Of a stretch of DNA of 64,000 nt, positions 28,227-62,298 are shown piece after piece; positions within the stretch are counted from its first letter, which is position 1; every line of letters begins with the position of its first letter. The DNA comes from Thuidium tamariscinum (Eukaryota > Streptophyta > Bryopsida > Hypnales > Thuidiaceae): contig OX344749.2 of NCBI GenBank assembly GCA_947034885.2, forward strand, positions 23,327,501 through 23,391,500, written 5' to 3'. The notes beneath the pieces are model-generated. The model was not told the origin of the DNA, did no database searches, and saw nothing but the letters and a program-made list of their open reading frames with translations. The position numbers and the translations under genes are program-made.

Positions 28227-28630
28227 GTAAGCTCGCACTACATTCCTCAGCTCGGGTCCAGGCTCGTCAGTTACAAGCTTTAGTTGGAAAGGGCAATTCA
28301 TTCCATTGAATTTCGGTTAGTGTGTGACTCTTGGACGTTTCTAATGTTGGGAATGGAATGTGGGTTGTATTGTGTGCATTCAAATCTCTGGGGTTTAGCA
28401 TTGCGATTCTCAAATTGTTATACTGGAAGAGGAAATTTGAGATTCAGGCAATTAGTGTGTCAAACAGTGAGCATTCGGAGGGTTGGACTGGTTGGATGGG
28501 TTGGAATGTGGGTAATTATGTGTCAAACCTTTGGGGACTATAATTGCGATTCTGAAAATCTGAATGAAGTATAGGGTTGGGGATTGGGGATTGGGGATTG
28601 CGGGATTGATGAGATAGCTGTGTGTTACAG
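28227..28630 (+). other. 5' UTR intron of the phosphoglycerate kinase gene
   Basis: A donor CCTAG/GTAAGCTC at 28226/28227 and an acceptor GTGTTACAG at 28630 bracket a T-rich, AT-richer stretch 27 bases before the ATG. A leader intron in this position is common in strongly expressed plant genes and may support expression. Confidence 0.6.
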
Positions 28631-28657
28631 GGAGCATTTGAAGAATTCGACTTCAGG

Positions 28658-35823: not shown

Positions 35824-35925
35824 GCTACTAGTAAAGACTTAGGTGCATTTATAGGGGGCATGGTTAGACAGAATGCTACTAGTAAAGACTTAGGTGCATT
35901 TATAGGGGGCGTGGTTAGACAGAAT
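35824..35925 (+). repeat. 51-bp terminal tandem duplication
   Basis: Two copies (35824-35874 and 35875-35925) start GCTACTAGTAAAGACTTAGG and differ at one position (GGGGGCATGG versus GGGGGCGTGG). The right arm of the same element has a single copy, so the duplication arose after, or during, insertion. Confidence 0.8.
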
Positions 35926-36547
35926 GTCCCTATTGAGCCTCTTTCAGGGGCAGGATGAAATGTGGGCAGATCAAGGGCTGCTCCCCATCTCTTTGAGGAT
36001 CCATCAATCTAATTCTAATTTCGGTTTACATTTGATTTTTTCAACAAAGTAGATGAGAATGCTATAGAACACAAGATTTTCAATAAGAAAATCAAAGCAA
36101 TGATATGAGTTTTGTGCAACATGTTCACTTGAGCCTCATTGCCAATCTTATGTCGAAGTGGGAGAGGAGAGAAACTCTTTATACTGGTGGAGTAGTGGTG
36201 GGTGAAACAAACCATGTGGGATATGTGATTTAGGAGAAAAAAGAGCTCCTCCATTCATGGTTGTGGAAATGCAGGAATTGTGATAAAAGTTAAATTTCAG
36301 GCCTCATTTAAACATAATAGAATATATTTTTTCAAAAAACTTCAAACTAAAAAAAGTTGGGGAATCAAATACACTTTTACTTCCGAAAATCCGTTTGAGA
36401 TTTTAATACTCCACCTAAAAGTTATGGACAAATTTCAGAGGAGGAGTTCAAAAATGTCTCCAAAAAATGTCCTTTCCACACACACCTCTAGAATTTGTCA
36501 AGAACTCTTACATGAGGCTTCAAAATCTCAAGTACATTTTAAGAGAT

Positions 36548-37621
36548 GGGTCATTGCAAGAAACACCGACCACTTTTGTAGCGCTTTGCAAAATTTGTTC
36601 TTGTCCAATGCTATAACTTTTGATTGATGAATCCAATGCCCAAACAAAAAAAACACTATTTCTAGAGTTTTTCATTGCAATCATATTCTATATTTTTCAG
36701 AATTTACAAAAAATTATTTTATATTTTTAGGGTTTGTCACACTTTCAAGTTTAGGGTTTTTTTCCACAATTGATTGGTTCAAATTAATGATTTTGGATTG
36801 AAATTTTTGTGGTATGTTTTTATAGTAGGTAGGCATGTTCCTACCAAAGGGCATCCAAAAAAACATTATTTTATGACCTCTACATTAGTGCAAATAGGCC
36901 TCCCTTGGGTGCATACTTCAGATCATTAGAAATGATTTTGAACTCATTTTTTTAGTCAAACTTCATCAATGTAAAGTCTTCTCAAATGGCCTATTTTTAG
37001 TTTTGTTCAAAATTGTCTTCCCTATTCTTTACAAATTAAAACATCAATGTATGTATTTTCTAAAACATCATCTTGGACATTGAATTCTAGTAAAGAAAAT
37101 ACATACATTGATGTTTTAATTTGTAAAAAATAGGGAAAACAATTTTGAACAAAACTAAAAATAGGCCATTTGAGAAGACTTTACATTGATGAAGTTTGAC
37201 TAAAAAAATGAGTTCAAAATCATTTCTAATGATCTGAAGTATGCACCCAAGGGAGGCCTATTTGCACTAATGTAGAGGTCATAAAATAATGTTTTTTTGG
37301 ATGCCCTTTGGTAGGGACATGCCTACCTACTATAAAAACATACCACAAAAATTTCAACCAAAAATCATTAATTTGAATCAATCAATTGTGGAAAAAAACC
37401 CTAATCTTGAAAGTGTGATAAATCAACAAAAATAATTTTTAAATATAAAATAATTTTTTGTAAATTTTGAAAAATATAAAATATGATTGCAATCAAAAAC
37501 TCTAGAAATAGTGTTTTTTTTGGTTTGGGCATTGGATTCATCAATCAAAAGTTATAGCATTGGACAAGAACAAATTTTTTTAAAGCGCTACAAAAGTGGT
37601 AGGTGTTTCTTGCAATGACCC
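36548..37621. mobile_element. 1,074-bp foldback element with AGAT target duplication
   Basis: Starts GGGTCATTGCAAGAAACACC and ends with its complement (GCAATGACCC at 37621). The two halves, 36548 to ~37061 and ~37092 to 37621, are near-perfect inverted copies with a loop of about 30 bases. AGAT lies on both sides (36544-36547, 37622-37625). The corresponding place in the right arm of the host element (near 40935) has one uninterrupted AGAT. Ends match the 730-bp element at 19741-20470. No coding sequence. Confidence 0.88.
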
Positions 37622-37909
37622 AGATAAATGTTAGCTTGTTTCTCCCACTTTTTTTAGTTCTATTTTTTTTTTGGAAGAAGCTATTATATGATGCCCAAGT
37701 AAAGTCTAAAATTCAACTTCAAACACAATTCTTGCATTTCTAGTTACATCTCAAATTCTTAAGAACTTTAAATTAATATTTCACCATTATTGAAACAACA
37801 TGACAAACACAAAGTAGACACTTAAGGTTGTCTTAACAATGTTACAAGTTATATTGAATCAATGTTGTGAATTAAAAGCATTGTGCCAATAATTTGAATA
37901 TGGTGATGT

Positions 37910-38110
37910 AGGAATACTAAATCCACAATTATTCAAAGGTATTGTAGCTACAATTTTTGATATGGTGTTGTAGAATATTGAATGAACAATTACTCAAAGT
38001 AATTGTTTCACATTTTCAATATGGTGGTGTAGAATATTGAATGAACAATTACTCAAAGTAATTGTTTCACATTTTCAATATGGTGGTGTAGAATATTGGA
38101 TCAACAATTA
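37910..38110 (+). repeat. Tandem repeat, 59-bp period
   Basis: Two perfect units starting TAGAATATTGAATGAACAAT at 37971 and 38030, followed by a partial unit at 38089 and preceded by a diverged copy from about 37910. Non-coding, inside the large inverted-repeat element. Confidence 0.75.
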
Positions 38111-38334
38111 TTCATGGTTGAATTCTTGGAAATCATCTTCTACAAGGATTTCTCAAGACTTATAAAAAAAAGTGGTCACCTCATTCCGTGCTTGTAAGGG
38201 ATTGTTCTATTTTAATCAATTCATGCTTTCAAGTTTAAATGTTTAAATTTTAATTCCAAAATGCTGTCAAATTTTAATTCTTTTGCAATAAAATAGCTCT
38301 CAAAATTGTGACAGAGAGTGCGTTGGGGTTTTAA

Positions 38335-38487
38335 CACTACAAGAAAATGGGGGTATAAATGACTTGTTCATAATGACTGCACCGACAACAATGATTGCAA
38401 AATGACTACAAAATGACTATTTTGCAGTCATTGTTGTTGGTGTAGTCATTGTGGATAAGTCATTTATACCCCCATTTTCTTGTAGTG
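38335..38487. mobile_element. 153-bp mini-CACTA element (MITE)
   Basis: Begins CACTACAAGAAAATGGGGGT and ends with the exact complement ending TTGTAGTG at 38487. CACTACAAGAAA is the usual terminus of plant CACTA (En/Spm) elements. A 3-bp TAA duplication flanks it (38332-38334 and 38488-38490), again typical. The whole element is almost a perfect hairpin. It needs a transposase encoded elsewhere. Confidence 0.9.
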
Positions 38488-39706
38488 TAATGAGGGAATA
38501 ATATCCTTTTATAATTCATACTTTTCAATTGATGTTCATAGTCTACATCAACACAACATTTGAATTTTTGAAATGATCGTGGATATCTTTTGCCAATTGT
38601 TCACCCCTTATTTATTGCAAGCACTTGATGATAGATTAATGATGATGAAAGAAACTTGTCAATATCCTAAATTCCAATTACTTGAGAATGAAAAAGGAGA
38701 CTATTTCCTCTTTCAAGCTAATTAGATTGGATTAGAATATTGTATTGTGATGTAGGTATTGATTTATTTATTTACTAGGTTTGTGTAAGGAGGGTATTGT
38801 GTACACAATAACCCTTTTTGTTTAGTAGGATGTCAAAGCATGTCAGAGCTCTTATCACATAGACATAGAGGGTATCTTACAGGAAATGAAACTTCTTATG
38901 AGAAGGTATGAAATATGTATTAATTTCAAATTTAATTGTCTATTGATGACATTATGTTAAAACAATTTTACTTTTGTTATACACTTAATCATTAGGTAAA
39001 CATGGTAAAATATTCCATTGTTGTTTCAAATAACATTAGACTAATTTTTAGTTGTCAAAACATCTTTGAAAAAGTGTAATAATGCACCAAATGTTGAAAC
39101 AAAAATAAAACAAGGGGGAAGCAAAATTTGAGGTGTAACTATGAATGGCTTCACTTTCTATAAACAAAATTGAGAAGTGTTGAATATGGTACAATGTTAG
39201 TGGTGGAGTATTATCAATTTAGACCACACCTACATGTGCGATTAATAATACGTAACATTGTACAACTTTTTTGACATTCTTTCTTTGTTTGATGTTCAAA
39301 TTTATGATTAGAAAATATTCATATTAAGCTTCTAATATCTTTAATGATTAGTATTTGTCAAATAAAATAAAAAACAGATAACTTTCAAGTACTTGAAAAG
39401 CACAATTTTATTTCATTGCTTGAATGAAAGTGTGTTGTCACTGACAAAACTTATAGACATACTTCATATATATATAAGAAATATTTACAATGGAGAGTTG
39501 AAGATAAAACCATCACTATTTTGATTTTCATTAAGCAACTATGCTAATATATGATTGAATATGCAATTGCATTGTTTGTATAAAGAAACTACCAAATTCT
39601 TGTATGATTTTAGTGGAAGTTAGTTGAGTACTCTAAAATCTCCAAAAATGCATTTTTTTACACAACATATGAATAAATTATGAATTTTTACAATACTAAA
39701 ACATTA

Positions 39707-40358
39707 CACTAAATAGGGTATTTAGTGTTGGCAACACTATTTGCAAACCATGACACTAAATATCATTTACCCTACTAAAGTAAGTAACACTAAATGTAAT
39801 TTCTAACACTAAAAGTACTCTATGGCAAATCTGAAATATGAAGAGGTTTACAATTAGTGTTAGAAGGTAAAAAGTGACATAAGAGGATTTTCATCTGGTT
39901 TACAAGATTGCGAGTTCCCAAACGCTGGGAACGCATTGGGAACTCTGGGAACGCAGTGTTGATGTGGTAGAGCGACTGCCACATCAGAAAATATTAATTA
40001 ATGTAATTAATTAATATTTTAAAAATATTTTCTTGAATTTTTTTTTAAATCATTTTCTTCATTTCTTAAACATTCTGAAAAAAAATTAAAATTAAATTTT
40101 TTTTTTTTTCAAAATTCAAAAATCCAGACCAGCAAGGATGGTCTGCAGCAATGGGAACAGTTTCTGGGAACACCCCTGAAACAGTCTTCTTCAGGGCCAA
40201 AAATCCTCAGGGCCAAAAATCCTCTTATGAGACAACATGAAGGCGGCACATTGAAGTTTAGCACTACGCTAATCATCCTAAAATTGACATTTAGTGTAGG
40301 GTCAAGTAGGGTGGTAATTACACTAAATGTAATCCAACACTAAATACCCTATTTAGTG
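39707..40358. mobile_element. 652-bp inverted-repeat element, possible TA target
   Basis: The ends CACTAAATAGGGTATTTAGT (39707) and the complement (to 40358) are perfect over at least 25 bp, and TA flanks both sides. The motif ACACTAAAT is repeated inside both ends. A diverged copy of the left end occurs near 54665-54780. The element is interrupted by another small element at 39877-40230. Confidence 0.7.
39877..40230. mobile_element. Small inverted-repeat element ACATAAGAGGATTTT, copy 1
   Basis: The left end ACATAAGAGGATTTTCA and right end AAAAATCCTCTTATGA are inverted copies. The interior contains repeated GGGAAC motifs, a TGCCACATCAGA segment and an AT-rich core. The second copy is at 40427-40709 with the same ends and internal TTGCCACATCAGATA. 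No coding sequence. Confidence 0.65.
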
Positions 40359-40426
40359 TAGTGTTCCTACAACAATATTGTACAAATTTGATAGGAATTT
40401 GTAAAGACCATCACCTTAAAAAAAGT

Positions 40427-40709
40427 ACATAAGAGGATTTTTAGCTACTCTGGAAGACCGTGAGTTATCAAGCCATGGGAACTCTCTGAACGTTGCCACA
40501 TCAGATAATCATATTTAATTAATATTTTAATATTATTTTTTGAAAAAAAATATTTTATTATTATTTTTAAAAAAATTTAATAATATTTTAATATAAAAAA
40601 ATTATTTTTTTATTTTTTTATTTTTTTATTATTATTTTATCTTACGCGTTCGCAGACAGGGGAACAGGGCTGAAACGGTCTCCTGAAGCCCTGAAAAATC
40701 CTCTTATGT
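40427..40709. mobile_element. Small inverted-repeat element ACATAAGAGGATTTTT, copy 2
   Basis: Ends ACATAAGAGGATTTTTA (40427) and AAAAATCCTCTTATGT (to 40709) are perfect inverted repeats of about 16 bp. Interior segments match copy 1: GGGAACTCT, GCCACATCAGA, an A/T-only core and GGGGAACAGGGCTGAAAC. Confidence 0.7.
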
Positions 40710-42480
40710 TACAATTGGATTTACTTACTCAAATAGAAAATTCTACACCTCTAAGATTGTATACTTTTCAACACTTTTCAATTTTGTTCATAGGAATGAA
40801 GCTGCTAATGGTTAAGCAAAAACACAAGAATTGTGTTTGGAGTTGAATTTTAGACTTTATTTGGCCATCATATAATAGCTTCTTCCAAAAAAAAATAGAA
40901 CTAAAAAAAGTAGGAGAAACAAGCTAACATTTATCTCTTAAAATGCACTTGAGATTTTGAAGCCTCATGTAAGAGTTCTTGACAAATTCTAGAGGTGTGT
41001 GTGTGGAAAGGACATTTTTTGGGGACATTTTTGAACACCTCCTCTGAAATTTGTCCATAACTTTTAGGTGGAGTATTAAAATCTCAAACGGATTTTCGGA
41101 AGTAAAAGTGTACTTGATTCCTCAACTTTTTTTAGTTTGAGTTTTTTGAAAAAATATATTCTATTATGTTTAAATGAGGCCTGAAATTTAACTTTTATCA
41201 CAATTCCTGCATTTCCACAACCATGAATGGAGGAGCTCTTTTTTCTCCTAAATCACATATCCCACATGGTTTGTTTCACCCACCACTACTCCACCAGTAT
41301 AAAGAGTTTCTCTCTTCTCCCACTTTGACATAAGATTGGCTATGAGGCTCAAGTGAACATGTTGCACAAAACCCACATCTTTGCTTTGATTTTCTTATTG
41401 AAAATCTTGTGTTCTATAGCATTTTCATCTACTTTGTTAAAAAAATCAAATGTAAACCGAAATTAGAATTAGATTGATGGGTCCTCAAAGAGATGGGGAG
41501 CAGCCCTTGATCTGCCCGCATTTCATCTTGCCCCCGAAAGAGGCTCAATAGAGACATTCTGTCTAACCATGCCCCCTATAAATGCACCTAAGTCTTTACT
41601 AGTAGCAGGTGGGAATGGGTCTTAACCGACCCTCTTTCTTCTAGGAGTCTCTAAAATGAATATGTGATGATGAGGGAATGAACTAATGATTATGTCATAA
41701 CATAATAAGATTTTATTCATAGTTCATCAGTGGATGGTTCATACTACTTGACTCATTGATTTAACCCCTAAAGGACCAACATGCCTTTTTTGGCAACATA
41801 ACTATTTCGGGCAAGTATGTGTGACTAGAGATTTACATGTTTTGGGACCAAATTTTAATAGAAGGTGTGGACAAGGAATATCTTTAAAGCCCAACAATTT
41901 TTGTGACTTTTGACTACATGGTTAAAAAGTTATCGCATGATATGTTGTTTATTTCTCAACTCAGGCAGTTTGGGCAGATCAGAAAAAATCATTTTTTTAG
42001 AAAATAAAAATTTGAAATTGGTTTTATAGATTTTTATGTACATGGAAAGCTTTGAATTATTCCATTTGGACTAATGAGCCAAAAGTTATGAAGAGTTTTA
42101 GTTTGCGGGTAGTTATAGATTTCCTACCCTAAAATAAACTTTGAAGTCCTTTATTTTACTCAATTTTTAATATTTTTGGAAAAAATAAAAACATTGGGTG
42201 CAGGTTGTTTATTACAACATTTGAACAATTGGGATTGGCAAGTTTCAATTTCACAAATAAATTTTTAACAATTTAGTATTTTGAATCATTCTCTACTTCT
42301 TTTTACTTACTATTTATTTTCTATATGTTGTCCAATTTCAAATGATTTGAAATTTTTCAAGCATGTAGCCAACTTGCCTTGGAGAATGATTTCAAAGAAG
42401 CACTACGGTAGTCGGAATTCGTTATTTTTGCACTTGGCCAAGTGCAATTGTACGACACTAACAAACATTGGTTGTTACCT

Positions 42481-42707: not shown

Positions 42708-44041
42708 TAGTTCTCAAAGTTTGTTTGCACTGAAGTTCATTGGTACTTCCTTTTTTTTGGCACTCACAATTGTCAGTAGTGCATCACCAACTTCTTCCTC
42801 CACAAGCATTGTTCTGGATTCATTGTCTCTTTCAACAATCCCAGTTTTTCATAAAACCAATTTATTTGAGGTTTTTTGATATGAAGTCGAATTCATTTCA
42901 AATAAGTAGCTATTATAACTAGGAATCCCTACCTTTTGTTGTTGGTACAGAATATATTGTTCACGAATATGGTGGGTAGGGAATTTATAGTTTCAATTTA
43001 TTTCCATTGTTTTGGTATTTGGTTTAAAGTTTAAAGAAGTTGTTGTTATACACTAAACACATTTGCACACGAACCCAAATTTTTTTTATCCACTTTGTAT
43101 CTAAAGGGTCGTTTATGAACATGGTGTTTTGAGAAATTGTTCTCCCTATTTATTTGATCATTTTACTATGAAGTTAATTCAGAAGTTCATTGTTTTAGAA
43201 TAAAAAGGTGTGGTTAGGAAACTAAGGAAGAAGCTTACACTTCCAATTTTTTCCCACTCTTCGAGTATATAGTGTAGAGTTTCACAATGTATTGTTTTTC
43301 AGACATTTATTTGAAACGTTCCTACATGCTCATGGTGTACAGTTGGTACTTCTGGAACACGGTGGTTCAGATTGCTTCCAAACCCAAGTAGTCTTGTATC
43401 TCTTTGTCTGGAAGATAAAGTGCACTGAACCTGAATTGTGATCTTTATTTCCTTATGTAGTCCAACTTGAATAATTTTTGAACGTTAAGTGAAGCGACTT
43501 TAAACTTTTGAAATTGATTGTGAGATCTAAATGCCAGCTTAGAAATCCTTAAGTTAAGAGCACTAAGATACTAAGAAAAGTCTTAATGAGGCTCAATAAA
43601 GTGATAATTTTTGGTTATACACTTGCTGAGAGTTTGAGACCATTATGAGTTTCAAATTTCGGTTAAAGTAGAGACTATGTGATTGTTCACGGAAAGGTAG
43701 ATACCACTATAAAGTAATTGCGAAACAAAAGAGGGTCCTTCAAAAATATAAAGAGTGAGTGGACCTTCTGGAGTTGTATTCTTGAAGGAACTTTAAGATA
43801 ATGTGTACTCTTCAATTGTTTTCAGTCAATATGAGTAAGTTTCACTGTGTTCAAATTGTAGCACTAGTTATTCAATTCATATTGAAGTCGATTTAATGAA
43901 AGAAAATTACAAGGAAGTGGAGGAAATTTTATTTTTTCCATTTGTCTTTTGGCATTTTAGTTTCTAAAGAAAGTAGAAGCATCTGATCAATTGTTTTGCA
44001 AAGGCAACATGAATATTAACATGGAATGTGTACTGTGACAG
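42708..44041 (+). other. Upstream part of the DUF7869 transposon gene
   Basis: No long frame is open here. An acceptor TACTGTGACAG ends at 44041, so one or more short 5' exons with the initiating ATG are expected in this interval, but I could not place them. Confidence 0.35.
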
Positions 44042-47000
44042 GAAGCAAGAACGATAGTTGATGGAAGGGCTTTTGGAAGTCCAGTAAGTGCACCAGTGTT
44101 AGCCACAGTGGGAGCCCCTCCAGGAAGTAGTGTTGGACAAAGAATAATAAGAACTTGTCATGCAAGACTATTTGAAGGTGGTGTGTTCCAAAGAGGTCAA
44201 GCACACGAAGCTGGAGGCGATCATACAGTGGAACTCATCTCTGAAGTAGGAATACTTGTAGCAACAGGAGTTATTGTTGAAAACATTGTTTCTGGAATGG
44301 AACTTCATCAGGTTAAGTTATGGCCTGATGAAGTAGCAGTGCGTGTAGTTACTGTACTGGATGGAACCTTATATACCGGAGAGCTAATGGGGGAGCATCT
44401 ACGTGATTGCGTGGGATTGGTGATTCGTTGGAAGAAATCAAGAGTCCGTAGTGTAAGGGAAAGAAGTCCGATCACACCAGAAAGGACAGGAGGACCAAAT
44501 TTTACGTTTTCCCCAACAACATCATCGACCTACGAGTTTGAAGAGAGCAACACTAGTCCCAGTCCTTCGGAACTCTCTTTCAACACACGTAACAGTAACA
44601 GCATTCCTCAACAGAGGTCTCCGATAACAGAAGAAGGAAGTAGTAGCAGACAATATGAAGAAGTAGTAGAGAGAGTACCGGGATCAAGAAGCCCCCGACC
44701 GTACACAATGGTAAACCGAAGGAGACGAGAGAGAGGAGCACGTGTAAGAGGAGAAACACTGAACCAGAAAGTGACATTACAAAGTGTTTTAGCAGCCAAA
44801 AGCAAAGGAGCATGTAAGAAAAATTGCTTGAGCGAAATAGATGAGAAGTACATTCTTAATCAAAGGTGCATGGCATGGGGACAAAAGTACGAACAACGGT
44901 CAACATGGATTCTACAAATGTTGAGTGCTTTTTTTATAAGAACAGAAGGACGTGCCAGGCACAAGTATGCAACAAAGTTGGATGGTTTTGATGTTTGCAA
45001 TGCATGCTACGCGGCCGCACTCGAGTACTCGCAGAGGCGATTCAAGCAATTGAAGCAATCACAACAAGTGTATGGAAGAGTGACTGCTGTACATGGAAAT
45101 ACATGTCAGTTGAGAGAAGGAGCAATAATGTCAGCAACACGGGCAAGTTTTGAAGAGTTTGTGAAGGAAGCAGGGTGCACGCAACCACACAGGCAAATAC
45201 GGAGGAGTGTTGATAACAGCATAGTGCCGCTGATTTTACTACCCATGAACACAACGAAGAAGGATGTCTTTGAGTACGTGAATGAAGAAGTGAAGAAGAT
45301 GGTGAATGGACAAACGCTGAGCTTGATTTCGTTCCGTCAGATGTGGCGTAAAGAGTTCCCACACATGCAAATTCCACCGTACTCTCGTTTCTCAAAGTGT
45401 TACCATTGTTGGGAATACAAGTGTGGAATGGAAGCTACAACAAATGTAGCAGCTCGTGAAGAGATAAAGAAGTTATACATACTACACATTCAACATCAAA
45501 TGGAAGAGAGGCATGATTATTGGTTGTTCAAGAGGTCAGCCATGATAACACCAGACTTTTTTATGTGTTTGATAGTGGACGGCATGGACCAAAATACAAC
45601 TATGGTTCCCAAGATGAGGCAATCTGTCAAGAATATTGAATCCCGATTTGTGAAAACTCACCTTTGTGGGGTTTTAGTGCATGGGATAGGATTGTATGCA
45701 GATGTGTGGATTGACGCACACCACAAGCATGACAGCAACCAAGTCATAACTACAATAATGCATGTCTTATCAGACGTGCGAAGAAGGAAGGGAAAACTTC
45801 CACCAACTTTGCGAATTCAAGCAGACAATACAACTCGTGAGAACAAGAACATATACATGTTTGCTTTATGTGCAGCTCTAGTGGGCTTGGGATTTTTCCA
45901 AGAGGTGCAATTGTCTTTTTTAATTGTCGGCCATACGCATGAAGACATTGACCAGAGGTTCAGTATCATTTCCAACACGTTGAAGAGGAAGAACATTGAT
46001 TCTATGGATGAAATGTTGGCTTTGGTAGAGCAGGGAACATCATATACAGAGGCCTTTGTTAGTGCTCGAAAGCTAGAGAATGTTCGAGATTGGAAGTCGT
46101 TTATAACACCACATCTTCTACGGGGAAGAGATCAATTGACGGGTATAACGTTTCCGCACCACATGAGGTTTTATGTGGAGAATGGAGTACCTCGTGTTCA
46201 ACACAAGCACTTTAGCAAAGATGCATGGGGACCAGCTGAGGGGCATTTGTGCTTGGATTCTGTACCAAGTACAACAAATGCACCAGGTTTTGCTGAGGTG
46301 GCAGCAGCAGACGAGAGAGAGTTAAAGGCATTGGAAGATTTTATAAAGTATAAGGAGAAATGTGTGGACAGAGGAATGGAGGTCGAAAGGAACAATGAAG
46401 TTATAAAGAAGACGAAGGACTTCATGAAGTATTTGAAAGAATTTCCCACATGGGATAGAACTCCACAATTGGACGTGCCGTTTTGGCCATCAACAAGTGC
46501 AGCAAATGAAGAAAGCGGTACTGAGTTCAATAGTGTTTCTCATGAAGGAGAGGAACCAAACATGACCGTTACAACAGTGGACTCTATTATGGCAACCATG
46601 CCAGATCCAGAAGCTCGAGGCTACTTTGGTCCACGAAAAAACAAGCCAGTACGGAAAGCGGGGACAAGAGCTCCAAGGAGAACAGGGGAACATGAAACTG
46701 GAGAGACTATAGCTGCAAGAAACATGGATGGAAGCGAAGATCCGTTTCCTATGTTCGACCCAGAGAAAGACCTAGATGTTGGACAATTTGTAGCCTTGCA
46801 TGTGGAATCCACTGAAGTAAGAGCTGGAGTGCCATTTTATATTGGGAAAGTGTTAAAATTTGGTCAACGGAAGCGAGCAACAGAGATGAAGGTTATATGG
46901 TATTGGCCAACGATGACGGCGAGAAATGGAAGAGAAGAGAGATCCATGGAAGAACGGTATACAAACTGTATGGAAAAATTGTGGAAACCTTCTGGTGAGA

Positions 47001-47227
47001 AGCACGGCTGGGTATTCAAAGAAGCAGCTATATTTTCCTGGAATGACATACCACAAAGAACAAGAATTGGATCTCTACAAGAAAATAATGTACAAGTGCA
47101 TGGAGTTCTAACAGAGAAAGAAATGAACATTCCAGCTTTTGCGAAACCTCATATGTTGGAGTACATTGCATTGCACTCGGAGCGCTTGGACAACGAACGA
47201 TTGGAGAATGATGTAGGTGGATTTTAA
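44042..47227 (+). CDS. DUF7869-like protein, candidate DDE-type transposase
   Basis: A single open exon of 1,061 codons runs from the AG acceptor at 44041 to TAA at 47225-47227; the ATG lies in an unmapped upstream exon. Numbering from codon 44096: residues 1-115 form an unrecognised globular part; 120-225 are Ser/Pro/Arg-rich; Cys pairs at 240/244, 301/304 and 435/438 suggest zinc binding. The core has LIVDGMDQN (D495), QADNTT (D577) and VGHTHEDID (H613-D619), the conserved motifs I associate with DUF7869 proteins. They are spaced like acidic catalytic residues of an RNase-H-like fold. The C-terminus (PFYIGKVL...KVIWYWP) resembles a small chromatin-reader-like domain. Terminal inverted repeats around the gene support a transposase role. 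No frameshift is seen, so it may be recently active. Confidence 0.7.
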   Translation, partial: EARTIVDGRAFGSPVSAPVLATVGAPPGSSVGQRIIRTCHARLFEGGVFQRGQAHEAGGDHTVELISEVGILVATGVIVENIVSGMELHQVKLWPDEVAVRVVTVLDGTLYTGELMGEHLRDCVGLVIRWKKSRVRSVRERSPITPERTGGPNFTFSPTTSSTYEFEESNTSPSPSELSFNTRNSNSIPQQRSPITEEGSSSRQYEEVVERVPGSRSPRPYTMVNRRRRERGARVRGETLNQKVTLQSVLAAKSKGACKKNCLSEIDEKYILNQRCMAWGQKYEQRSTWILQMLSAFFIRTEGRARHKYATKLDGFDVCNACYAAALEYSQRRFKQLKQSQQVYGRVTAVHGNTCQLREGAIMSATRASFEEFVKEAGCTQPHRQIRRSVDNSIVPLILLPMNTTKKDVFEYVNEEVKKMVNGQTLSLISFRQMWRKEFPHMQIPPYSRFSKCYHCWEYKCGMEATTNVAAREEIKKLYILHIQHQMEERHDYWLFKRSAMITPDFFMCLIVDGMDQNTTMVPKMRQSVKNIESRFVKTHLCGVLVHGIGLYADVWIDAHHKHDSNQVITTIMHVLSDVRRRKGKLPPTLRIQADNTTRENKNIYMFALCAALVGLGFFQEVQLSFLIVGHTHEDIDQRFSIISNTLKRKNIDSMDEMLALVEQGTSYTEAFVSARKLENVRDWKSFITPHLLRGRDQLTGITFPHHMRFYVENGVPRVQHKHFSKDAWGPAEGHLCLDSVPSTTNAPGFAEVAAADERELKALEDFIKYKEKCVDRGMEVERNNEVIKKTKDFMKYLKEFPTWDRTPQLDVPFWPSTSAANEESGTEFNSVSHEGEEPNMTVTTVDSIMATMPDPEARGYFGPRKNKPVRKAGTRAPRRTGEHETGETIAARNMDGSEDPFPMFDPEKDLDVGQFVALHVESTEVRAGVPFYIGKVLKFGQRKRATEMKVIWYWPTMTARNGREERSMEERYTNCMEKLWKPSGEKHGWVFKEAAIFSWNDIPQRTRIGSLQENNVQVHGVLTEKEMNIPAFAKPHMLEYIALHSERLDNERLENDVGGF

Positions 47228-54805: not shown

Positions 54806-55189
54806 TTAGACCCTTAGGTTCCTTGACTATGTTTATTCCAAAAGCAATCAAGAACTACTGTTTTTAATACCAATACCAAATATTCTTAAGAAAGCATTTT
54901 TTGAGATTTGTAACTATAGGATCTTGTAGAAAATTGGTTTGAAAACATGAAAAAAAAACTTTCAAAGTTTTTTCACTATGTAGATTGTTAGATATTAGCA
55001 TTTGAATGCTCAAAAATAATTTTTTTCACCTTGTAGAAAATAGGGTAGCAGCTCTTCAACAAGTGACAATCGGGGCTTTTTTTTTGGCTTTGTGAGGCCA
55101 ATTTGCACTGAAGCTTGGGCCCTGGCGAAAGTGCTATACAACTTTTTGTCAGAAAACACTGCTTGTTTCGTCACGTGAGCAACCTTGCA

Positions 55190-55400
55190 GGGCTGCCAGG
55201 TGCCAGGGTGGCGATGTTATGGCCTTGGGAGGAGTGTTAAATCGCCACCTTCCCTTCCCATAATCGCCACTTTCTTTTTCGTAATCGCCATAACGCGCAG
55301 TTGATCTTCGAGCTTAACTCCGGCGCTACCACTCCTCTCGCCACAGTTTCTCCCGCCGTTGCTTCATTGTCGCCACTCCCAGCTTTGATGGAAACTGTAC
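55190..55400. promoter_or_regulatory. Left subterminal CGCCA motif cluster of the hAT element
   Basis: ATCGCCA or its complement recurs at least five times here (for example ATCGCCACC, ATCGCCACT, ATCGCCATA, TGGCGAT, TCGCCACTC). A matching cluster lies at 61330-61560. hAT transposases bind short subterminal repeats, so these are candidate binding sites; that role is inferred. Confidence 0.5.
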
Positions 55401-55814
55401 CATCGCCAAGTACCTGGCTTCAGTGTAGCTAGGGTTTGCTAGGGTTTTGCGAGGTGGTGGCCACGGTTTTGCGAGGTGAAGGCGAGGGTTTTGTGAGGTG
55501 GAGGTACGGGTTTCAGCTCTGGAATTATTGTGTCAAGATCAGTCATCGCTCCTCATCGTGGTGCACCTCTATCCATTAATTTTTTGGCTGATAAATACTG
55601 TAGTTTCTTGAAATGGTGGCCCTGAAACTTTACTTCGCTTTCTTTCAAACCATGCATGTTAAATTGAAGATTGCCTTCGGTGATTATCATGACAATCAGT
55701 GCTTAGCTTTAGGTGTTGCACCATTTTTGAAATTGCACTGTATCTTTGCACTTGTCATTGGGGTTTTAGAATTGGTGTGTCGTAATTCTATTCTTGTTGT
55801 GACGTGTGTGTGAG

Positions 55815-58800
55815 ATGGAGTCTGCTGGCGAGGGGTCCGGAGACAATGTTGTGGGGAAGGCTGTGCGTGCAAAGGCTATTGCAAATGCAGTGAAGAAGAA
55901 AGATGAGAGGGCAGCTCGGGAGGCTCTTGAAGTGGCTCGCGTGGAGATGAAGAGGAAGGGGAAGGAGATTAACTTGCAAAGGGCAGAGGAGCGAAAGCGA
56001 ACGATGAAATCGTACTTCCATTCAAGTCGTGGGATTGGATCGGGGGTGCCTCTCGCTCTCGTATTGGATGGTTCGATGCCTGACGTCCCCGGAGCAGAAC
56101 CTCAGTCGGAAGAAGAATACTCCAGCGATTTCGACGGGGTTGACCGAATTGAGCACTTGACAAGCGGCTGCCGAAATTCATCACAATCTGTGGATATTGC
56201 GAAGACTCCGAGATCATCATCAGGATCCGGGGATACAATTGTCTTGAGTGCCAAATCGCCGTTAATCCATATTTCGGAGGATTCTGAAGATGTAGGTGAA
56301 GCGAAGTTGGACAAAGTTGGTGACGCATCAAAGGGGTCCGACAACTCCGATTTCGATTCTCCACCACGAAAGAGAGGCGTTGCAGTTCGGACGAGGTCTG
56401 AGTTGGAGCGATCCAAGGTCCAGAAGAGATACGATCGGCATCGAAAATTTCAAACTCTCTGGGCTACGAAGCTCCCTTGGGCTGAAGGAATCATGGCATC
56501 AGACGGCATTCTACACATGGTCAAGTGCAAAGTCTGTTCTACTGTTGATAGAAAGCCTTGCATCATGGCTCCAAAATCTGATACACTTTTCAAACATGAC
56601 GGCAAACGAATTGCGAAGAAGGATTTGCCACAGCACAAGGTCAAAGCAGGAGAGAGCTACATTGCAACTCAATGTAAGCATCGTAAAAATTTGCGGTTGT
56701 ACGTAGCAAAGCCACCGCCCACTGTGTTGGAGCAAGTGAATCATTGCACGTCGCTGGAGGCTAGAAAGAAGAAAGTGTAGTTCGCAACATTATTTCAGTT
56801 GCTTTTTCAAGGTCAACCGATGGTGGAGTTCGAGGCTAGACAAGCCTTGTACAAGTTTTTGGAGGTTCCCGATTTGCCATCAACCCACTGGTGTGACAAT
56901 TCGGGGTGGGTCATGGCAACATACATGTATAAACAGATCATGCAGGAGACACGCAGGCTAATTGGTGCTGCGAGATATTTGGCAGTCATAGTCGATGAGG
57001 TTACTGCAATGGACAATAGTAGTTTTCTGTCCGTTCATGCTTATATTGTTCAAGATTGGGTAAGGATTCCGTTGCTTATTTCCTTACAACGGGTTGAGTG
57101 TAGTCCAACAGTTGAGAATCTCACTGCTTTGATTGTGGGGTCTGTGAGAGTTGGTGCTGGACTGAATGCAGAGGGCGTAGTATACAAGTTGCTCAGCTTC
57201 GGAGCTGACGGTGCGTCTACGCTTCAAAGAACTCGAACAGGGGTTACGGTTCAAATTAAAGAGAAACATACCCCCAATGTTATCAGGGTGCATTGTATGG
57301 CACATCGTTGTAACTTGGCATTCAAGGCCTTGTCTGATCTTGCAATATTTAGTGAGATAGAGAAACTGTTGTCTGTCAGCTACGCATACTTCTGCAAGAG
57401 CCCGAAGCGATTTATTGAATTCCGCCAATTGGCCGAATTAACAGAGATGAAGGGACTCAAGATGCTTCGTAATGTACAGACAAGGTGGGTGAGTTTAATC
57501 GAGCCCTTGCGGCGCCTCCTGTCTGAATATCGCACGCTCATTTACAAAATGACGGCAGATCTTCACGAAAACAACAAAGTTGAGGTATGTTTCGGTCGAT
57601 CATCTCCAATAGTGTCTGCATGATGAAGCGTCAATCATCATTTTGACCTTAGAGTATTAAAACAAGGTTCTCATGTCTTACTTAGTAATTTATCTAATTT
57701 AGTTACAAAGTTCCAATTCACTTACGAAGTTCTGATTTCATCATTCCTGTAACATGCTGCACTTAATTGCATGTATTGTATATGTACTGATGCACTTACT
57801 AACTAGTCGTTCTTGATTGTGTGCAAGCTTGTCTCGTACTTTTGCTTGACCCGTTTACTTTGCTTGGAATGTGTGCATTGTTGCCCCTTTTAGAAGCAAT
57901 CGACACACTGATCAATTTTGCACAAAAAAGAGACGTGTACGTCTGTGACTTCGTGGCTACAGTGAATATTTGCCAAGGAGCACTACACCGCATGTACGAA
58001 GATAAAGACACAGCCTTCACCTCAGATGAGTTTTGGAGCTTCAATAATCTACTTGACTGTAGCCACCAGCAAATCCACATTAAGTGGATTACAGATTTGA
58101 ACGACAACTCTACGCTATCTTTTGTTTGTTATGGTGAGCTAATCCCTGCCGAACACAAAGGAGCTCCAGTTGACCGCAAAGTTTGGGCCGTTCTGCTAGC
58201 CAAAGTGAAGGCGGAGTGTACTAGTACGTTCTCTTCCTCTCATTTCACTGCCTCAATATTGCAAGTTTTCATGTGTGTGGGATGTTGACATTGATGTTGC
58301 AGATTGTAATTCCTTTTCTATGAAACCACTAAGTTCTTGAATAAACTTCTCACTACGTAATATATTTGATCGCAGGTGCAGCAACGATGTTGATTGGAGA
58401 ACTAGATAATCGATTCCCTGCCCAACAAGTTATGAATGCATTGGGCATTTTATATCCCCAATATTGGTGCATGCCAACTGCAGACGAGATGTTCGACAGT
58501 CACCTGCGCATTTTGATGGACACGTATGGACATGGGAAGGTTCTTGGGGAGGGTGACCACAAGCGCTTGATTCCTCCTGTGATTGATCGTGAGGCTCTCA
58601 TCACACAGCGTGCTCTCTTCAAAACATGCATGAAAAGCAATTCTCGAGCTGCTATGCTCCCCCCTTTCGACATAAATCCGTTGACGAAAGTCTGGAGAGT
58701 ACTCAACAGCAACCATAACTTGACTCAAAATTTCGGGGAGTTCGTGAAGCTTGCTGAAATTGCTGTTGTCCATGTTCTGGGTTCGGTGGAAGATGAACGC

Positions 58801-58980
58801 CTATTCTCCACCCTTGGATTTCTTAAATCGAAGCTGCGCAACAATTTGGAGGAACATATTCAAGTCGTACTAGGGATGTTCTCCCAACGTGTTTATACCT
58901 TGGAGAACTTTCCTTACCAGCAAGTTTTCGATGACTGGTTTGTGGCAGGAGGTCGAGGTAGATATTTGTCCAGCACTTAA
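55815..58980 (+). pseudogene. hAT transposase gene (zinc-finger 862-like type), broken
   Basis: The exons appear to be 55815-57584 (or to 57588), about 57828-58223, and 58376-58980. The first exon keeps one frame across an in-frame TAG at 56778-56780: coding-like sequence ends LEARKKKV and resumes FATLFQLLFQGQPMVEFEA in the same frame, so a nonsense change (plausibly CAG to TAG) is the simplest reading. N-terminal part: acidic/Ser-rich, then a Cys-containing region (KCKVCSTVD) that may be a BED-type finger. The middle part contains VIVDEVTAMDNSSF and HCMAHRCNLAFKAL, typical of hAT catalytic cores. The C-terminus VHVLGSVEDERLFSTLGFLK is the hAT dimerisation domain. The donor/acceptor phase at the first intron is uncertain. 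Confidence 0.75.
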
Positions 58981-59730
58981 TTAGTTGTAGGACTTCTGAT
59001 AGAAAAAGTGAGGGGTCATAGTACAGGTAACTACAACCTTTAGTTGGCACTAATATTTTCCTGAGTTTAGCTCTAGATGTTCATTAAGATTCATTTTGTT
59101 CTTGAATCTGATCGAGTTGTTGTCTTCGGTTATGAACTTCAATGACACGGACTAATATTATTAAGTCCAATTCACTGTTATTACTGATTGCGTTGGTATA
59201 TCAGACTCATGCAGATTAGCTTCGAAGCAGTACCGCTTACATGTGAGAAGGTTGCTCTTCTTGTTACAGACCTCTTTATATTTAATTTCAGTTTGAAGCA
59301 CTAGTGCGTCGATAGGTTTTAACATCTGTGCAGGTACATCTCATCGTCCATGGAAGCAGTGTCGTATACAGGTGATGTGATCATGATTTCCTGATCAACT
59401 TGTCCTGTGAAGTAATTGGTGATCAAGCCTTTTAAAGGTACTTTGGCTTAGAAGCTGTCACTTTTTCTTGCTTGAGTTTTACTAACTGCGCTACATGTTT
59501 ACAGATAATGAGTGCTGTTTTGAATGACTAGGATGCGCACGGTTTGTGTTGAGATTTTCAACTGAATGTGTGGACAGATTGAGATGCAAAAGGGGTGGTG
59601 AGAAAGTCTTTTTAAAATAATTGAACCTCGCTTGTTTCTGAAGAAGCGAATCTTACTGATTGATGTTCGTTGAAAGTACTTTGGTATATATTAGTCTTGT
59701 TCTCCACTCTACTGTATTTCCATTTTCCAG

Positions 59731-59960
59731 GTTGATTCTCTTATGTCAGCAGCAGCGTCTGTTGTATGCAACTCCACGAGAACTCCATGAAAGTATAACC
59801 GTAGTTTCAGTTGAAGGAACTCGAGCGACGAGTGGACTTCACGATCTAGAAAAGATATTGAACAATCTTCCGCAGCGTCGGCATGGAGCGGAATCCCGGG
59901 AAAACTGGGGGGTTGACTCATTTCGTCAACCGTGGGATCGTCAATTTGAAAAGATTTGAG
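59731..59960 (+). pseudogene. Possible captured exon inside the hAT element
   Basis: Following a TTTTCCAG acceptor, a frame of about 75 codons reads through YATPRELHESITVVSVEGTR and QRRHGAESRENWGVD to a TGA. Base composition is exon-like. The family was not recognised; it may belong with the next two fragments or be untranslated hAT sequence. Confidence 0.3.
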
Positions 59961-60120
59961 AATAGGTGCACAACATTTATAGAACAGATTCAGTGTGGTA
60001 CGTTTGAAATCCCAGAATTTTCACAGCTATGAGACCGGTTGTTTAATTCCCATATAGTTGTGAAATGCATCTTTGTTACGATTGGTTAATTTTCACGCCA
60101 GGTCCATTATATTAATTCAG

Positions 60121-60623
60121 TGCACTTAATGTGTGACCAGTTCCTCCGGGAGTACTCCTTGAAGGTTGCTGATCTCATGAGCCACAAGCACCAAGATGGA
60201 GTGCAATCGGTTGGATGGAAAGCCGATTTCAATCTGGTAGCAGATTCGGTATGTATCAACAAATCTGCTCTAAGAAAATTACTTGGCATTAACGTGACAC
60301 ACTTCTTTCAATTGCTGTATTGACCCATTTTGCTAGATTATGCACTATGCTAGACTATAATACTGAGAATCAACAAACTAAGAATTAGGAATTGTGAAAA
60401 TAATTCAACCTGCTTAACTTACCTCAAGTTCAAGTCCTTCAACTGATGGGCGTCCTAATCAGTGGCAAAAAATGTGACTCTGCAGAATATGTATGCCCAG
60501 CTCTTACCGTTGGCACTCCCAGCTCCGCCGACTGCAGCGACAGCTGGGCCATTTGATCCGTATGCAGGGTTGCCCACTTATGGTATGTTGCAGACGATTG
60601 GCAGCACATCACCAGCTTACTGA
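60121..60623 (+). pseudogene. Two captured terminal exons of an unrecognised gene
   Basis: Exon 60121-60248 (acceptor TTAATTCAG, donor GTATGTATC) encodes CDQFLREYSLKVADLMSHKH and DGVQSVGWKADFNLVADS. In phase, exon 60486-60623 encodes NMYAQLLPLALPAPPTAATA, GPFDPYAGLPTYG and a stop. The two join without a frame change, so they are probably the last exons of one host gene. I could not name the family. Both lie between the hAT transposase stop and the right hAT terminus. Confidence 0.45.
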
Positions 60624-60819
60624 AACTCATGTTTTTTCTTCATCTTATTTAGAAACGTGGTTTCTTACGTACCATCTGCCTGGCTGTTCAGATTCTCTTC
60701 TTATTCGGAATGGCTTCTTGAGGATGTTTATTCCAGACTAGCCCGACTATTGATAATCCTGAAGTGCTCTTGATTTTGTATGAACTTTGTTGTTTAACAA
60801 AAAATTTTGCTTGTCTCAG

Positions 60820-61145
60820 GAGCCAATCTTTTTGTATTTGGTGGGCCAAGATCAAGGAAGCTGTAACTGCTGTTCATCTAAAGCAGCCAATGAATTGCAG
60901 TTTGGAAGAGCTGTATTGGGTTGTGGAGGATCTTTGCCTTCACAAGATGGTAGGAAATTTGTACAGAAGATTGCAGTAGGAATGTGAAAGTCACATCTCA
61001 GCAAAGCTGAAAGATCTTTTGGGGCATTGTCTTGACGCTATGGTGTTTCTGTCTCATGTGGAAACTTGCTGGCAAGACCATTGCGACCAAATGCTTGTTA
61101 TCTGTAGCATTGCGCTCTATCTGGATCGTACCTATATATGTTATT
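60820..61145 (+). pseudogene. Cullin-4-like gene fragment with in-frame stop
   Basis: After an acceptor CTTGTCTCAG, the frame reads WAKIKEAVTAVHLKQPMNCS, LEELYWVVEDLCLHKM and GNLYRRLQ, then TAG (60977-60979), and continues in frame ECESHISAKLKDLLGH, VETCWQDHCDQMLVICSIAL and YLDRTYI. This order matches the N-terminal helical (adaptor-binding) part of plant CUL4, the scaffold of CRL4 ubiquitin ligases. Only about 107 codons are present, and they run into a short AT-rich tandem repeat (TTATTCAAAACTCTTATCTA units). It is a dead fragment carried inside the hAT element. Confidence 0.75.
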
Positions 61146-61329
61146 CAAAACTCTTATCTATGTTATTCAAAACTCTTATCTATGTTATTAACCTTTGTTA
61201 ATATCTATATCTTAAGGTATTCACTTCTCTCAAAACTTCAGTAACTTTACCATCGGAGGGTGTGGGAGGGTGCAGGTCCGAGTCTTCCAATAAAAAATAA
61301 CGTGAATGATTAACGTCATATCATGGGAA

Positions 61330-61560
61330 AACACTGATAATTTCGCCAATTGGACCCTCTTCCACCCTTCCATTTCGCCCATGAATGGAAAAATGAGTGC
61401 TGGTAGTCGCCATGGTAGCCTCCCTCCCTAAATAGTGATAGCCTAAATGAATCTGAGCACAGTAATGCATTCGCCTAAATTTGCACCGCATGTTTCGAAC
61501 CATCGCCAGCCTCGAACTTGAGACTTTACATAAACATCGCCATGCCAGCCTCTACTGCGA
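61330..61560. promoter_or_regulatory. Right subterminal CGCCA motif cluster of the hAT element
   Basis: Contains TTCGCCAAT, TTCGCCCAT, GTCGCCATG, TTCGCCTAA, ATCGCCAGC and ATCGCCATG within 230 bp of the right terminus, mirroring the left cluster. Candidate transposase-binding sites by inference. Confidence 0.5.
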
Positions 61561-62298
61561 AAAAGATATAGCCTTTTCTTTCATTTCCAAAATGTGAAAA
61601 AAAAAGCCCTGGTGACAATCATATCAAAAATGGTTCAAAATGGTTGTGCTTCTTTGGATCAAATTTTGGGACCAAGTACTTGCCTTAAAAGTTTCAAATC
61701 ATTGGAAATTGTACAATATATAGGAAAACGATAGTTAGTAGAAGGAAGTAGTAAATGATCTAAAATACAAAATTGTTAAGAATTTCTTTAAGGAATTGAA
61801 AAATGACAATTCCAATGGTTTCAATGTTTTAGTAGATAATTTACATGCCATGATTTGATTTGATTTTGAAAAATATTGAAAGTTGAGTAAAATAAAGGAC
61901 TTCAAACTTTATTTTAGAGTAGAAATTCCATAACCGTGTGCAAACAAAAACTCCTCATAACTTTTGACTCATTGATCAAAATGAAATGAATTGAAGTTTT
62001 CCACACAAATATAAATGAAGGAAATAAATTTTAAATTTTAATTTTTGAAAAAAGTTTTTTTTTCCAATCTACCTAAATAGCCCGGTTACGAATAAAAGTA
62101 ACATATTAGGCCATAACTTCCCACATAACTTTTGATGTGTATTTCCACATGTCCTAAATTTTAGTGCATTTGAAAGATGTCCCTCCTCCCCACCTTGTAT
62201 TAAAATTTAGACACAAATTATGGAAATCTCTAGTCACATATACTTGCCTAAAATTGTTATGTTGCTAAATTTAGGAAGTTAGTCCTTTAATGGGTAGT

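What the first reader, a model, noticed from the sequence alone, without database searches (positions are those of the whole stretch)
55071..61611. hAT element that carries captured host exons, including cullin-4
The 8-bp duplication GTGACAAT and CAGGG-type ends define the element exactly. Between the transposase stop and the right end lie spliced-exon-like fragments of at least two unrelated genes, one clearly cullin-4-like. Gene-fragment capture is well known for Mutator-like elements and Helitrons. A hAT that retains its own transposase plus several foreign exons is less usual.
Basis: partly seen in the sequence, partly recalled or inferred. Interest (0 to 1): 0.8.

Follow-up and report, generated by a model that had tools for sequence, protein, structure and literature searches.

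The report
hAT transposon carrying stacked gene fragments
In what looks like a moss genome, a cut-and-paste transposon with a broken transposase gene carries pieces of a cullin, a clathrin and an RNA-binding-protein gene plus one intergenic stretch, picked up in several rounds; this kind of gene capture is known, but here sister copies let the order of the steps be read.

Summary
55071-61611 is a hAT element flanked by the 8-bp duplication GTGACAAT; the best paralogous empty site in the same genome carries it once. Downstream of the transposase gene lie 1.8 kb of foreign DNA from four loci on four contigs: CUL4 (two pieces), single-copy DNA near an Lhcb9-like gene, the last two exons of clathrin heavy chain, and an RRM-protein gene. 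Introns are retained, so genomic DNA was copied, not mRNA. Two sister copies on another contig share the first layers but then carry a branching-enzyme fragment. A third relative, with its own duplication, has no cargo. The pieces nest: CUL4 first, the second segment inside CUL4's intron, then lineage-specific replacements. Divergence from donors (about 6% down to 1.3%) fits that order. Half of the ten junctions show 2-5 bp microhomology. Best reading: repeated template-switching repair inside the element. A well-resolved new member of a known kind. Chimeric transcripts remain untested.

The parts
55063..55070 (.). left copy of the 8-bp target-site duplication GTGACAAT
   Evidence: single copy at the best paralogous empty site
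61612..61619 (.). right copy of the target-site duplication GTGACAAT
55071..55085 (+). left terminal inverted repeat CGGGGCTTTTTTTTT (one mismatch to the right end)
61597..61611 (-). right terminal inverted repeat CAGGGCTTTTTTTTT
55242..55408 (+). left subterminal cluster of TCGCCA (6 copies in this span)
   Evidence: role as transposase binding sites is inference
61343..61542 (+). right subterminal cluster of TCGCCA (4 copies in this span)
   Evidence: role is inference
55815..57584 (+). transposase exon 1 with in-frame TAG at 56778-56780
57827..58222 (+). transposase exon 2; acceptor reads CAA just before it; 3' limit approximate
58379..58980 (+). transposase exon 3 with hAT C-terminal dimerisation motif; 5' limit approximate
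   Evidence: hhalign
58981..59400 (+). element's own tail, shared with the cargo-free relative L013
59404..59480 (+). cargo 1: end of CUL4 exon 1 (..KPFK, splice donor GT at 59438) and start of intron 1, from C4:16309098-16309022 minus, 96%
59475..60018 (+). cargo 2: single-copy DNA from C9:21634979-21635335 and C9:21635587-21635791 (251 donor bases missing between), 92% and 97%
60017..60634 (+). cargo 3: last two exons (60141-60248, 60486-60623) and intron of clathrin heavy chain, from C3:34238531-34239148, 98.7%
60630..60842 (+). cargo 4: intron and exon start of an RRM-protein gene, from C1:19889993-19890205, 94%
60841..61153 (+). cargo 1 again: part of CUL4 exon 2, from C4:16308247-16307939 minus, 94%, with an in-frame TAG
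61135..61192 (+). junction filler: TATGTTATTCAAAACTCTTATC twice and begun a third time
61193..61611 (+). element's own right part, shared with L013

Best explanation
This is a hAT transposon copy whose tail, downstream of the transposase gene, has become a mosaic of host DNA. SHOWN: the element and its 8-bp target duplication; the foreign pieces and their donor loci; the nested arrangement shared in part with two sister copies; retained introns; short homologies or repeats at several junctions. INFERRED: after breaks inside the element (excision gaps, or breaks in a fragile AT-rich tail) the broken end was extended on unrelated chromosomal templates by a repair polymerase that switched template at 2-5 bp homologies, and later rounds hit the tract already captured. 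Order: (1) about 1.16 kb of CUL4 (exon 1 end to exon 2) replaced about 113 bp of tail; (2) a C9 segment was pasted into the CUL4 intron with about 3 bp lost; (3a) in the window's lineage RRM-gene and clathrin pieces replaced the middle; (3b) in the C8 lineage a branching-enzyme segment replaced the CUL4 3' half and part of the tail. Layers 1 and 2 travelled with the element (two sites with different target duplications); the branching-enzyme layer is at two sites on C8. The broken window copy can now move only if a relative supplies transposase. The cargo is probably not a protein gene; it could supply splice-competent exons or small RNA.
For: Cargo-free relative L013 with its own TSD covers 55077-59400 and 61193-61611. 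L010 covers 55073-60018 and 61341-61612 at 96%, with TSD GAGGTAAC. The C8 copies' private tract is C9 (1-153), CUL4 intron (152-329) directly downstream of the 77-bp CUL4 piece, then branching enzyme (344-1771). Microhomology read: 5, 2, 2, 2 and 3 bp at five of ten junctions, chance P 0.006, 0.17, 0.17, 0.17, 0.058. Divergence: CUL4 4.1-6.4%, RRM 5.3%, C9 2.5-3.9%, branching enzyme 2.6%, clathrin 1.3%; window-L010 split 3.4%, L009-L010 2.5%. The donor loci on C3, C4, C9 and C1 (9.9 kb held each) match the element only at the fragments.
Against: The other five of ten junctions lack clear microhomology: element|CUL4 has 3 unmatched bases, the C9 internal gap 0-1 shared base, CUL4|element a repeat filler, CUL4|branching enzyme 14 unassigned bases, branching enzyme|element about 33. 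Three of the five homologies are only 2 bp, not significant one by one. The clathrin and RRM layers occur in one copy, so they may have been filled in after landing. Dates rest on 3-37 differences per segment without a clock. The RRM piece (5.3%) looks older than the window-C8 split (3.4%), so it may have been acquired before step 3.
Confidence: 0.83

Rival explanations
1. End-fusion capture: two neighbouring hAT copies bracketed host DNA and moved together (the model of PMC8903248).
For: Proposed for Pack-TYPE elements including hATs (section 9 of PMC8903248). A relative lies about 160 kb away on the same contig.
Against: Fragments come from unlinked loci on C4, C9, C3 and C1. The 9.9-kb donor loci match the element only at the fragments. 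C9 sits inside the CUL4 intron with about 3 bp lost and no terminal repeats at the seams.
Confidence: 0.06
2. The fragments were captured from mRNA (retro-capture).
For: Fungal hATs carry an intron-less histone H3 (PMC6710886, passages). CUL4 exon 2 here lacks an interruption that the second CUL4 locus has.
Against: The donor CUL4 on C4 itself lacks that interruption. Clathrin, RRM and branching-enzyme pieces keep intron DNA collinear.
Confidence: 0.02
3. The window-only layers (clathrin, RRM) were added by repair after this copy had landed and never moved with it (compatible with the best explanation; a rival only on timing).
For: They occur in a single copy; PMC8277862 (abstract and passages) finds that single-copy Pack-TIRs arise mostly by transposition-independent gap filling.
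Against: None decisive; the RRM piece may predate the split from the C8 copies.
Confidence: 0.5
4. The tract is a functional chimeric gene kept by selection.
For: Two clathrin exons keep frame and splice signals, with one amino-acid change in 81.
Against: CUL4 exon 2 has a TAG, 11 non-synonymous against 4 synonymous codon changes, and of 16 differences 12 fall on the element side, 2 on the donor side, 2 unclear. The clathrin piece may simply be young (1.3%).
Confidence: 0.05

Closest known systems
Hatvine-6 hAT family of grapevine (PMC2528002; passages seen)
   Same: hAT copies share a transposase and ends while the rest varies and matches host exons and introns
   Different: No order of capture, nesting or junction analysis in the passages seen; here three cargo copies plus a cargo-free relative give the order, in a probable moss
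Pack-TYPE / Pack-hAT elements of maize and rice (PMC8903248; passages and section 9 seen)
   Same: TIR elements with captured gene pieces; newer DNA more internal than older
   Different: By that pipeline any element with a transposase match is called autonomous and is not counted as Pack-TYPE; proposed mechanism is fusion of neighbouring insertions
Pack-TIRs of animals (PMC8277862; abstract and passages seen)
   Same: Gap filling with template switching; microhomology of 1-36 bp at breakpoints
   Different: Here several unlinked donors are stacked, with a later piece inside an earlier one
Maize Ds2-22 and Ds-l4 elements (PMC3260210; passages seen)
   Same: hAT capture of genomic exon-intron DNA
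   Different: Non-autonomous Ds elements; the examples seen carry one gene fragment each

Membership tests
hAT superfamily | 8-bp target-site duplication | tested here: met
hAT superfamily | short terminal inverted repeats of CAGGG type | tested here: met
   right end CAGGGC, left end CGGGGC with one mismatch; L010 has CAGGGC at both ends
hAT superfamily | transposase with C-terminal dimerisation region | tested here: met
   Pfam scans gave no transposase family, but hhalign of 7 exon-3 sequences against 6 PF05699-matching hAT tails from the same genome gives probability 81%, E 1.2e-5 over 38 columns; 30 column-shuffled controls reach at most 0.8%
hAT superfamily | RNase H-like catalytic core with three acidic residues | tested here: inconclusive
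   AlphaFold models of two exon pieces had mean pLDDT 38 and 40 and were not searched
Pack-TYPE element (packFinder definition) | host gene pieces between the TIRs | tested here: met
Pack-TYPE element (packFinder definition) | no transposase match in the element | tested here: not met
   transposase gene present though broken; definition from PMC8903248 passages
Helitron | no target-site duplication and no TIRs (recalled) | tested here: not met
Hatvine-6-like transposase-bearing capturing hAT | shared transposase and ends with variable host-derived region among copies | tested here: met
   window and C8 copies share the ends and the 5' cargo but differ in the 3' cargo; kinship to Hatvine-6 itself not tested

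The most novel reading that the evidence does not exclude
The captured tract is a repair hotspot: once foreign DNA is in, further breaks and template switches recur there, always copying donor genes in the transposase's sense direction (4 of 4 donor genes with known sense: CUL4, clathrin, RRM, branching enzyme), so the element works as a growing, splice-competent exon trap. Nothing seen excludes this, but four cases cannot establish a bias.
Probability: 0.12. Interest if true: 0.65.

Novelty: new member of a known kind. Interest (0 to 1): 0.42.

Why it matters
How cut-and-paste transposons pick up host genes is still argued (fusion of neighbouring insertions, or repair with template switching). 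Here three cargo copies, a cargo-free relative, the donor loci and paralogous empty sites sit in one genome, so the sequence of captures and the seams can be read, and they favour template switching inside the element. It also suggests that screens which set aside elements with a transposase match would miss such capturing elements, and that gene capture by hATs extends to mosses.

Tried and rejected
Pfam on the ORFs and on a spliced relative gave no transposase family; PDB by sequence gave only one insignificant match, E 1.2. Both AlphaFold jobs were too poor to search. The tails of two relatives at roughly 70-75% DNA identity (L030, L045) were looked at by ORFs and by blastn against the L013 tail only: no gene-like cargo seen; the genome search with the L030 tail did not complete, so cargo in other relatives is not excluded. 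Retro-capture, Helitron and end fusion were considered and rejected as above. The C9 segment as a gene: three ORFs, no convincing Pfam match; single copy outside the elements in a search of four candidates; treated as intergenic. The species was not found (one paper search). Literature searches; none of the listed titles and abstract starts describes a moss hAT with captured genes, which is only as strong as those eight searches of an open-access library.
Full report
Observation. The window is C1:23327501-23391500 of a 363-Mb genome in 19 contigs. The element spans 55071-61611 between two copies of GTGACAAT. The terminal repeats are 15 bp with one mismatch, the left end being CGGGGC and the right CAGGGC. 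I joined the flanks and searched the genome: 40 of 4817 candidates were scored, 38 of which run straight through the joining point; the remaining two are the window's own flanks. At the best one, about 54 kb away, a single GTGACAAT lies where the element is inserted; two others fetched carry one GCAACAAT each. The insertion and its edges are therefore secure. It landed in a dispersed AT-rich repeat.

Copies. A search with 55064-58980 gave 73 matches. Five places are close copies (88% or more): the window; C8:24.76 Mb (L010, TSD GAGGTAAC); C8:23.58 Mb (L009 with L021, interrupted by other DNA; its TSD was not determined); C1:23.55 Mb (L013, TSD CATAGAAG); and C1:40.88 Mb (L015, which stops matching at 59302, so its cargo status is unknown). 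Other matches are 66-76% relatives; in the parts held, L027, L028 and L040 have no stops in the aligned transposase frames.

Is it a hAT? Target duplication and ends fit. Pfam found no transposase family in the window's ORFs or in a spliced relative. A profile comparison of the last exon (7 sequences) with six PF05699-matching hAT tails from the same genome aligned the ER-FS-G...R..L core at probability 81% and E 1.2e-5, against at most 0.8% in 30 column-shuffled controls. I accept hAT membership. The catalytic core could not be tested: structure models were poor.

State of the transposase. The first exon has TAG at 56778-56780; the six other copies that align through it (L010, L021, L013, L027, L033, L040) have CAG or CAA, and L015 has a small deletion there. 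The intron-1 acceptor reads CAA where L009, L010, L027 and L040 have CAG and L015 and L033 have TAG; the older, cargo-free L013 shares the CAA. The cargo-bearing C8 copy L010 has three stops in exon 1. So the window copy is at best mobilised in trans.

Cargo. The region 59401-61192 has no match in L013, which has about 113 bp of its own sequence there. It is composed nearly end to end of: CUL4 exon 1 end and intron start (59404-59480, C4); C9 segment (59475-60018, with 251 donor bases missing inside); clathrin heavy chain end (60017-60634, C3); RRM gene (60630-60842, C1:19.89 Mb); CUL4 exon 2 (60841-61153, C4); and a repeated 22-mer filler. Pfam on donor-locus ORFs supports Cullin, RRM and Clathrin; the branching-enzyme donor has alpha-amylase and CBM48 domains; the C9 ORFs match nothing convincing. 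The names CUL4, clathrin heavy chain and branching enzyme are my readings of the translations together with those Pfam families. The C9 segment is single copy outside the three elements, about 1.5 kb from an Lhcb9-like gene on the other strand.

Nesting and order. The two C8 copies share the CUL4 5' piece, the C9 segment and its internal 251-bp gap with the window copy. Beyond 60018 they continue with more C9 DNA, then CUL4 intron that starts about 3 bp after the point where the first CUL4 piece stopped, then 1.4 kb of a branching-enzyme gene, rejoining the element at 61341. The C9 segment was thus pasted into an already captured CUL4 intron. In the window copy the middle was instead replaced by clathrin and RRM pieces while CUL4 exon 2 survived. 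Differences from donors: CUL4 3 of 73, 16 of 294, and 11 of 172 (C8 copy); RRM 11 of 208; C9 13 of 336 and 5 of 201 (13 of 348 in a C8 copy); branching enzyme 37 of 1410; clathrin 8 of 617. The window and L010 differ at 131 of 3901 sites over 55080-58980; L009 and L010 at 35 of 1400 in a rough slice of the branching-enzyme tract. Clathrin against RRM differs with Fisher P 0.002; clathrin against branching enzyme (0.07) and against the second C9 piece (0.33) do not reach significance. So clathrin is plausibly the last capture, and the RRM piece may predate the window-C8 split. Donor exons are constrained, which lowers their share; no clock was applied. Layers 1 and 2 sit at two sites with different target duplications, so they travelled; the two C8 copies match each other only up to the element's right end, so on that side they are not a segmental duplication.

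Seams. There are ten junctions in the two cargo types. Five have, by inspection, 2 and 3 bp of shared sequence (the clathrin-RRM seam lies in a run of T, so its 2 is a minimum reading); random breakpoints reach these with P 0.006, 0.17, 0.17, 0.17 and 0.058. The other five were not simulated: element-CUL4 (3 unmatched bases), the C9 internal gap (0-1), CUL4-element (the repeated filler), CUL4-branching enzyme (14 unassigned bases, and a repeated 21-mer in L009 that is single in L010), and branching enzyme-element (about 33 unassigned bases). Introns are retained, donors are unlinked, and the donor loci held match the element only at the fragments. This favours copying by a template-switching repair polymerase over fusion of neighbouring insertions or capture of mRNA.

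Function. CUL4 exon 2 in the element has a stop, 11 non-synonymous and 4 synonymous codon changes, and of 16 differences 12 are assigned to the element, 2 to the donor and 2 to neither, with the second CUL4 as outgroup. The clathrin piece keeps two exons, their splice signals and the stop, with one amino-acid change in 81. A CUL4 splice donor survives at 59438. A spliced chimeric transcript is possible but was not testable here.

Host. The Lhcb9-like gene scores 355 and 352 bits against PDB chains 8htu_9 and 7xqp_9; the next are LHCI chains of entry 9vfj (297 to 203 bits) and other light-harvesting proteins at 182 or less (best 60 of 634 matches shown). I recall the two top entries as Physcomitrium patens photosystem I with Lhcb9; the tool did not name the organism. 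With at least 11 contigs of 17 Mb or more (positions), a moss is likely; the species is unknown.

Place in the literature. Passages of PMC2528002 already report transposase-sharing hATs (Hatvine-6) with host exons and introns. Passages of PMC3260210, PMC8903248, PMC8277862 and PMC6710886 cover other captures and mechanisms. This is a new member of a known kind, with an unusually readable history.

Noticed in passing
window 44039-47227: 1062-aa open frame with a DUF7869 domain (Pfam E 1.3e-51), perhaps another mobile-element protein.
   Followed up: partly
window 36724-37431 within 35874-41607: A 338-nt inverted repeat with 32 nt between the arms (96%), lying inside a larger 481-nt inverted-repeat pair: a nested foldback-like structure.
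   Followed up: no
window 28613-29239: Start of a phosphoglycerate kinase gene with what looks like a plastid-targeting N-terminus.
   Followed up: no
L013 (C1:23550483-23555466): A cargo-free relative of the element lies about 160 kb from the window copy on the same contig.
   Followed up: partly
genome-wide: 150 of 714 candidate places were scored and match the standard hAT dimerisation domain, many in open frames over 1000 aa and of near-identical score: a large and perhaps recently active different hAT population.
   Followed up: no
G000 C4:16307939-16309098 and C1:39077236-39077843: Two CUL4-like loci; the C1 one has an interruption of about 310 bases, probably an intron, inside the stretch where the C4 one (the donor) has none.
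   Followed up: partly
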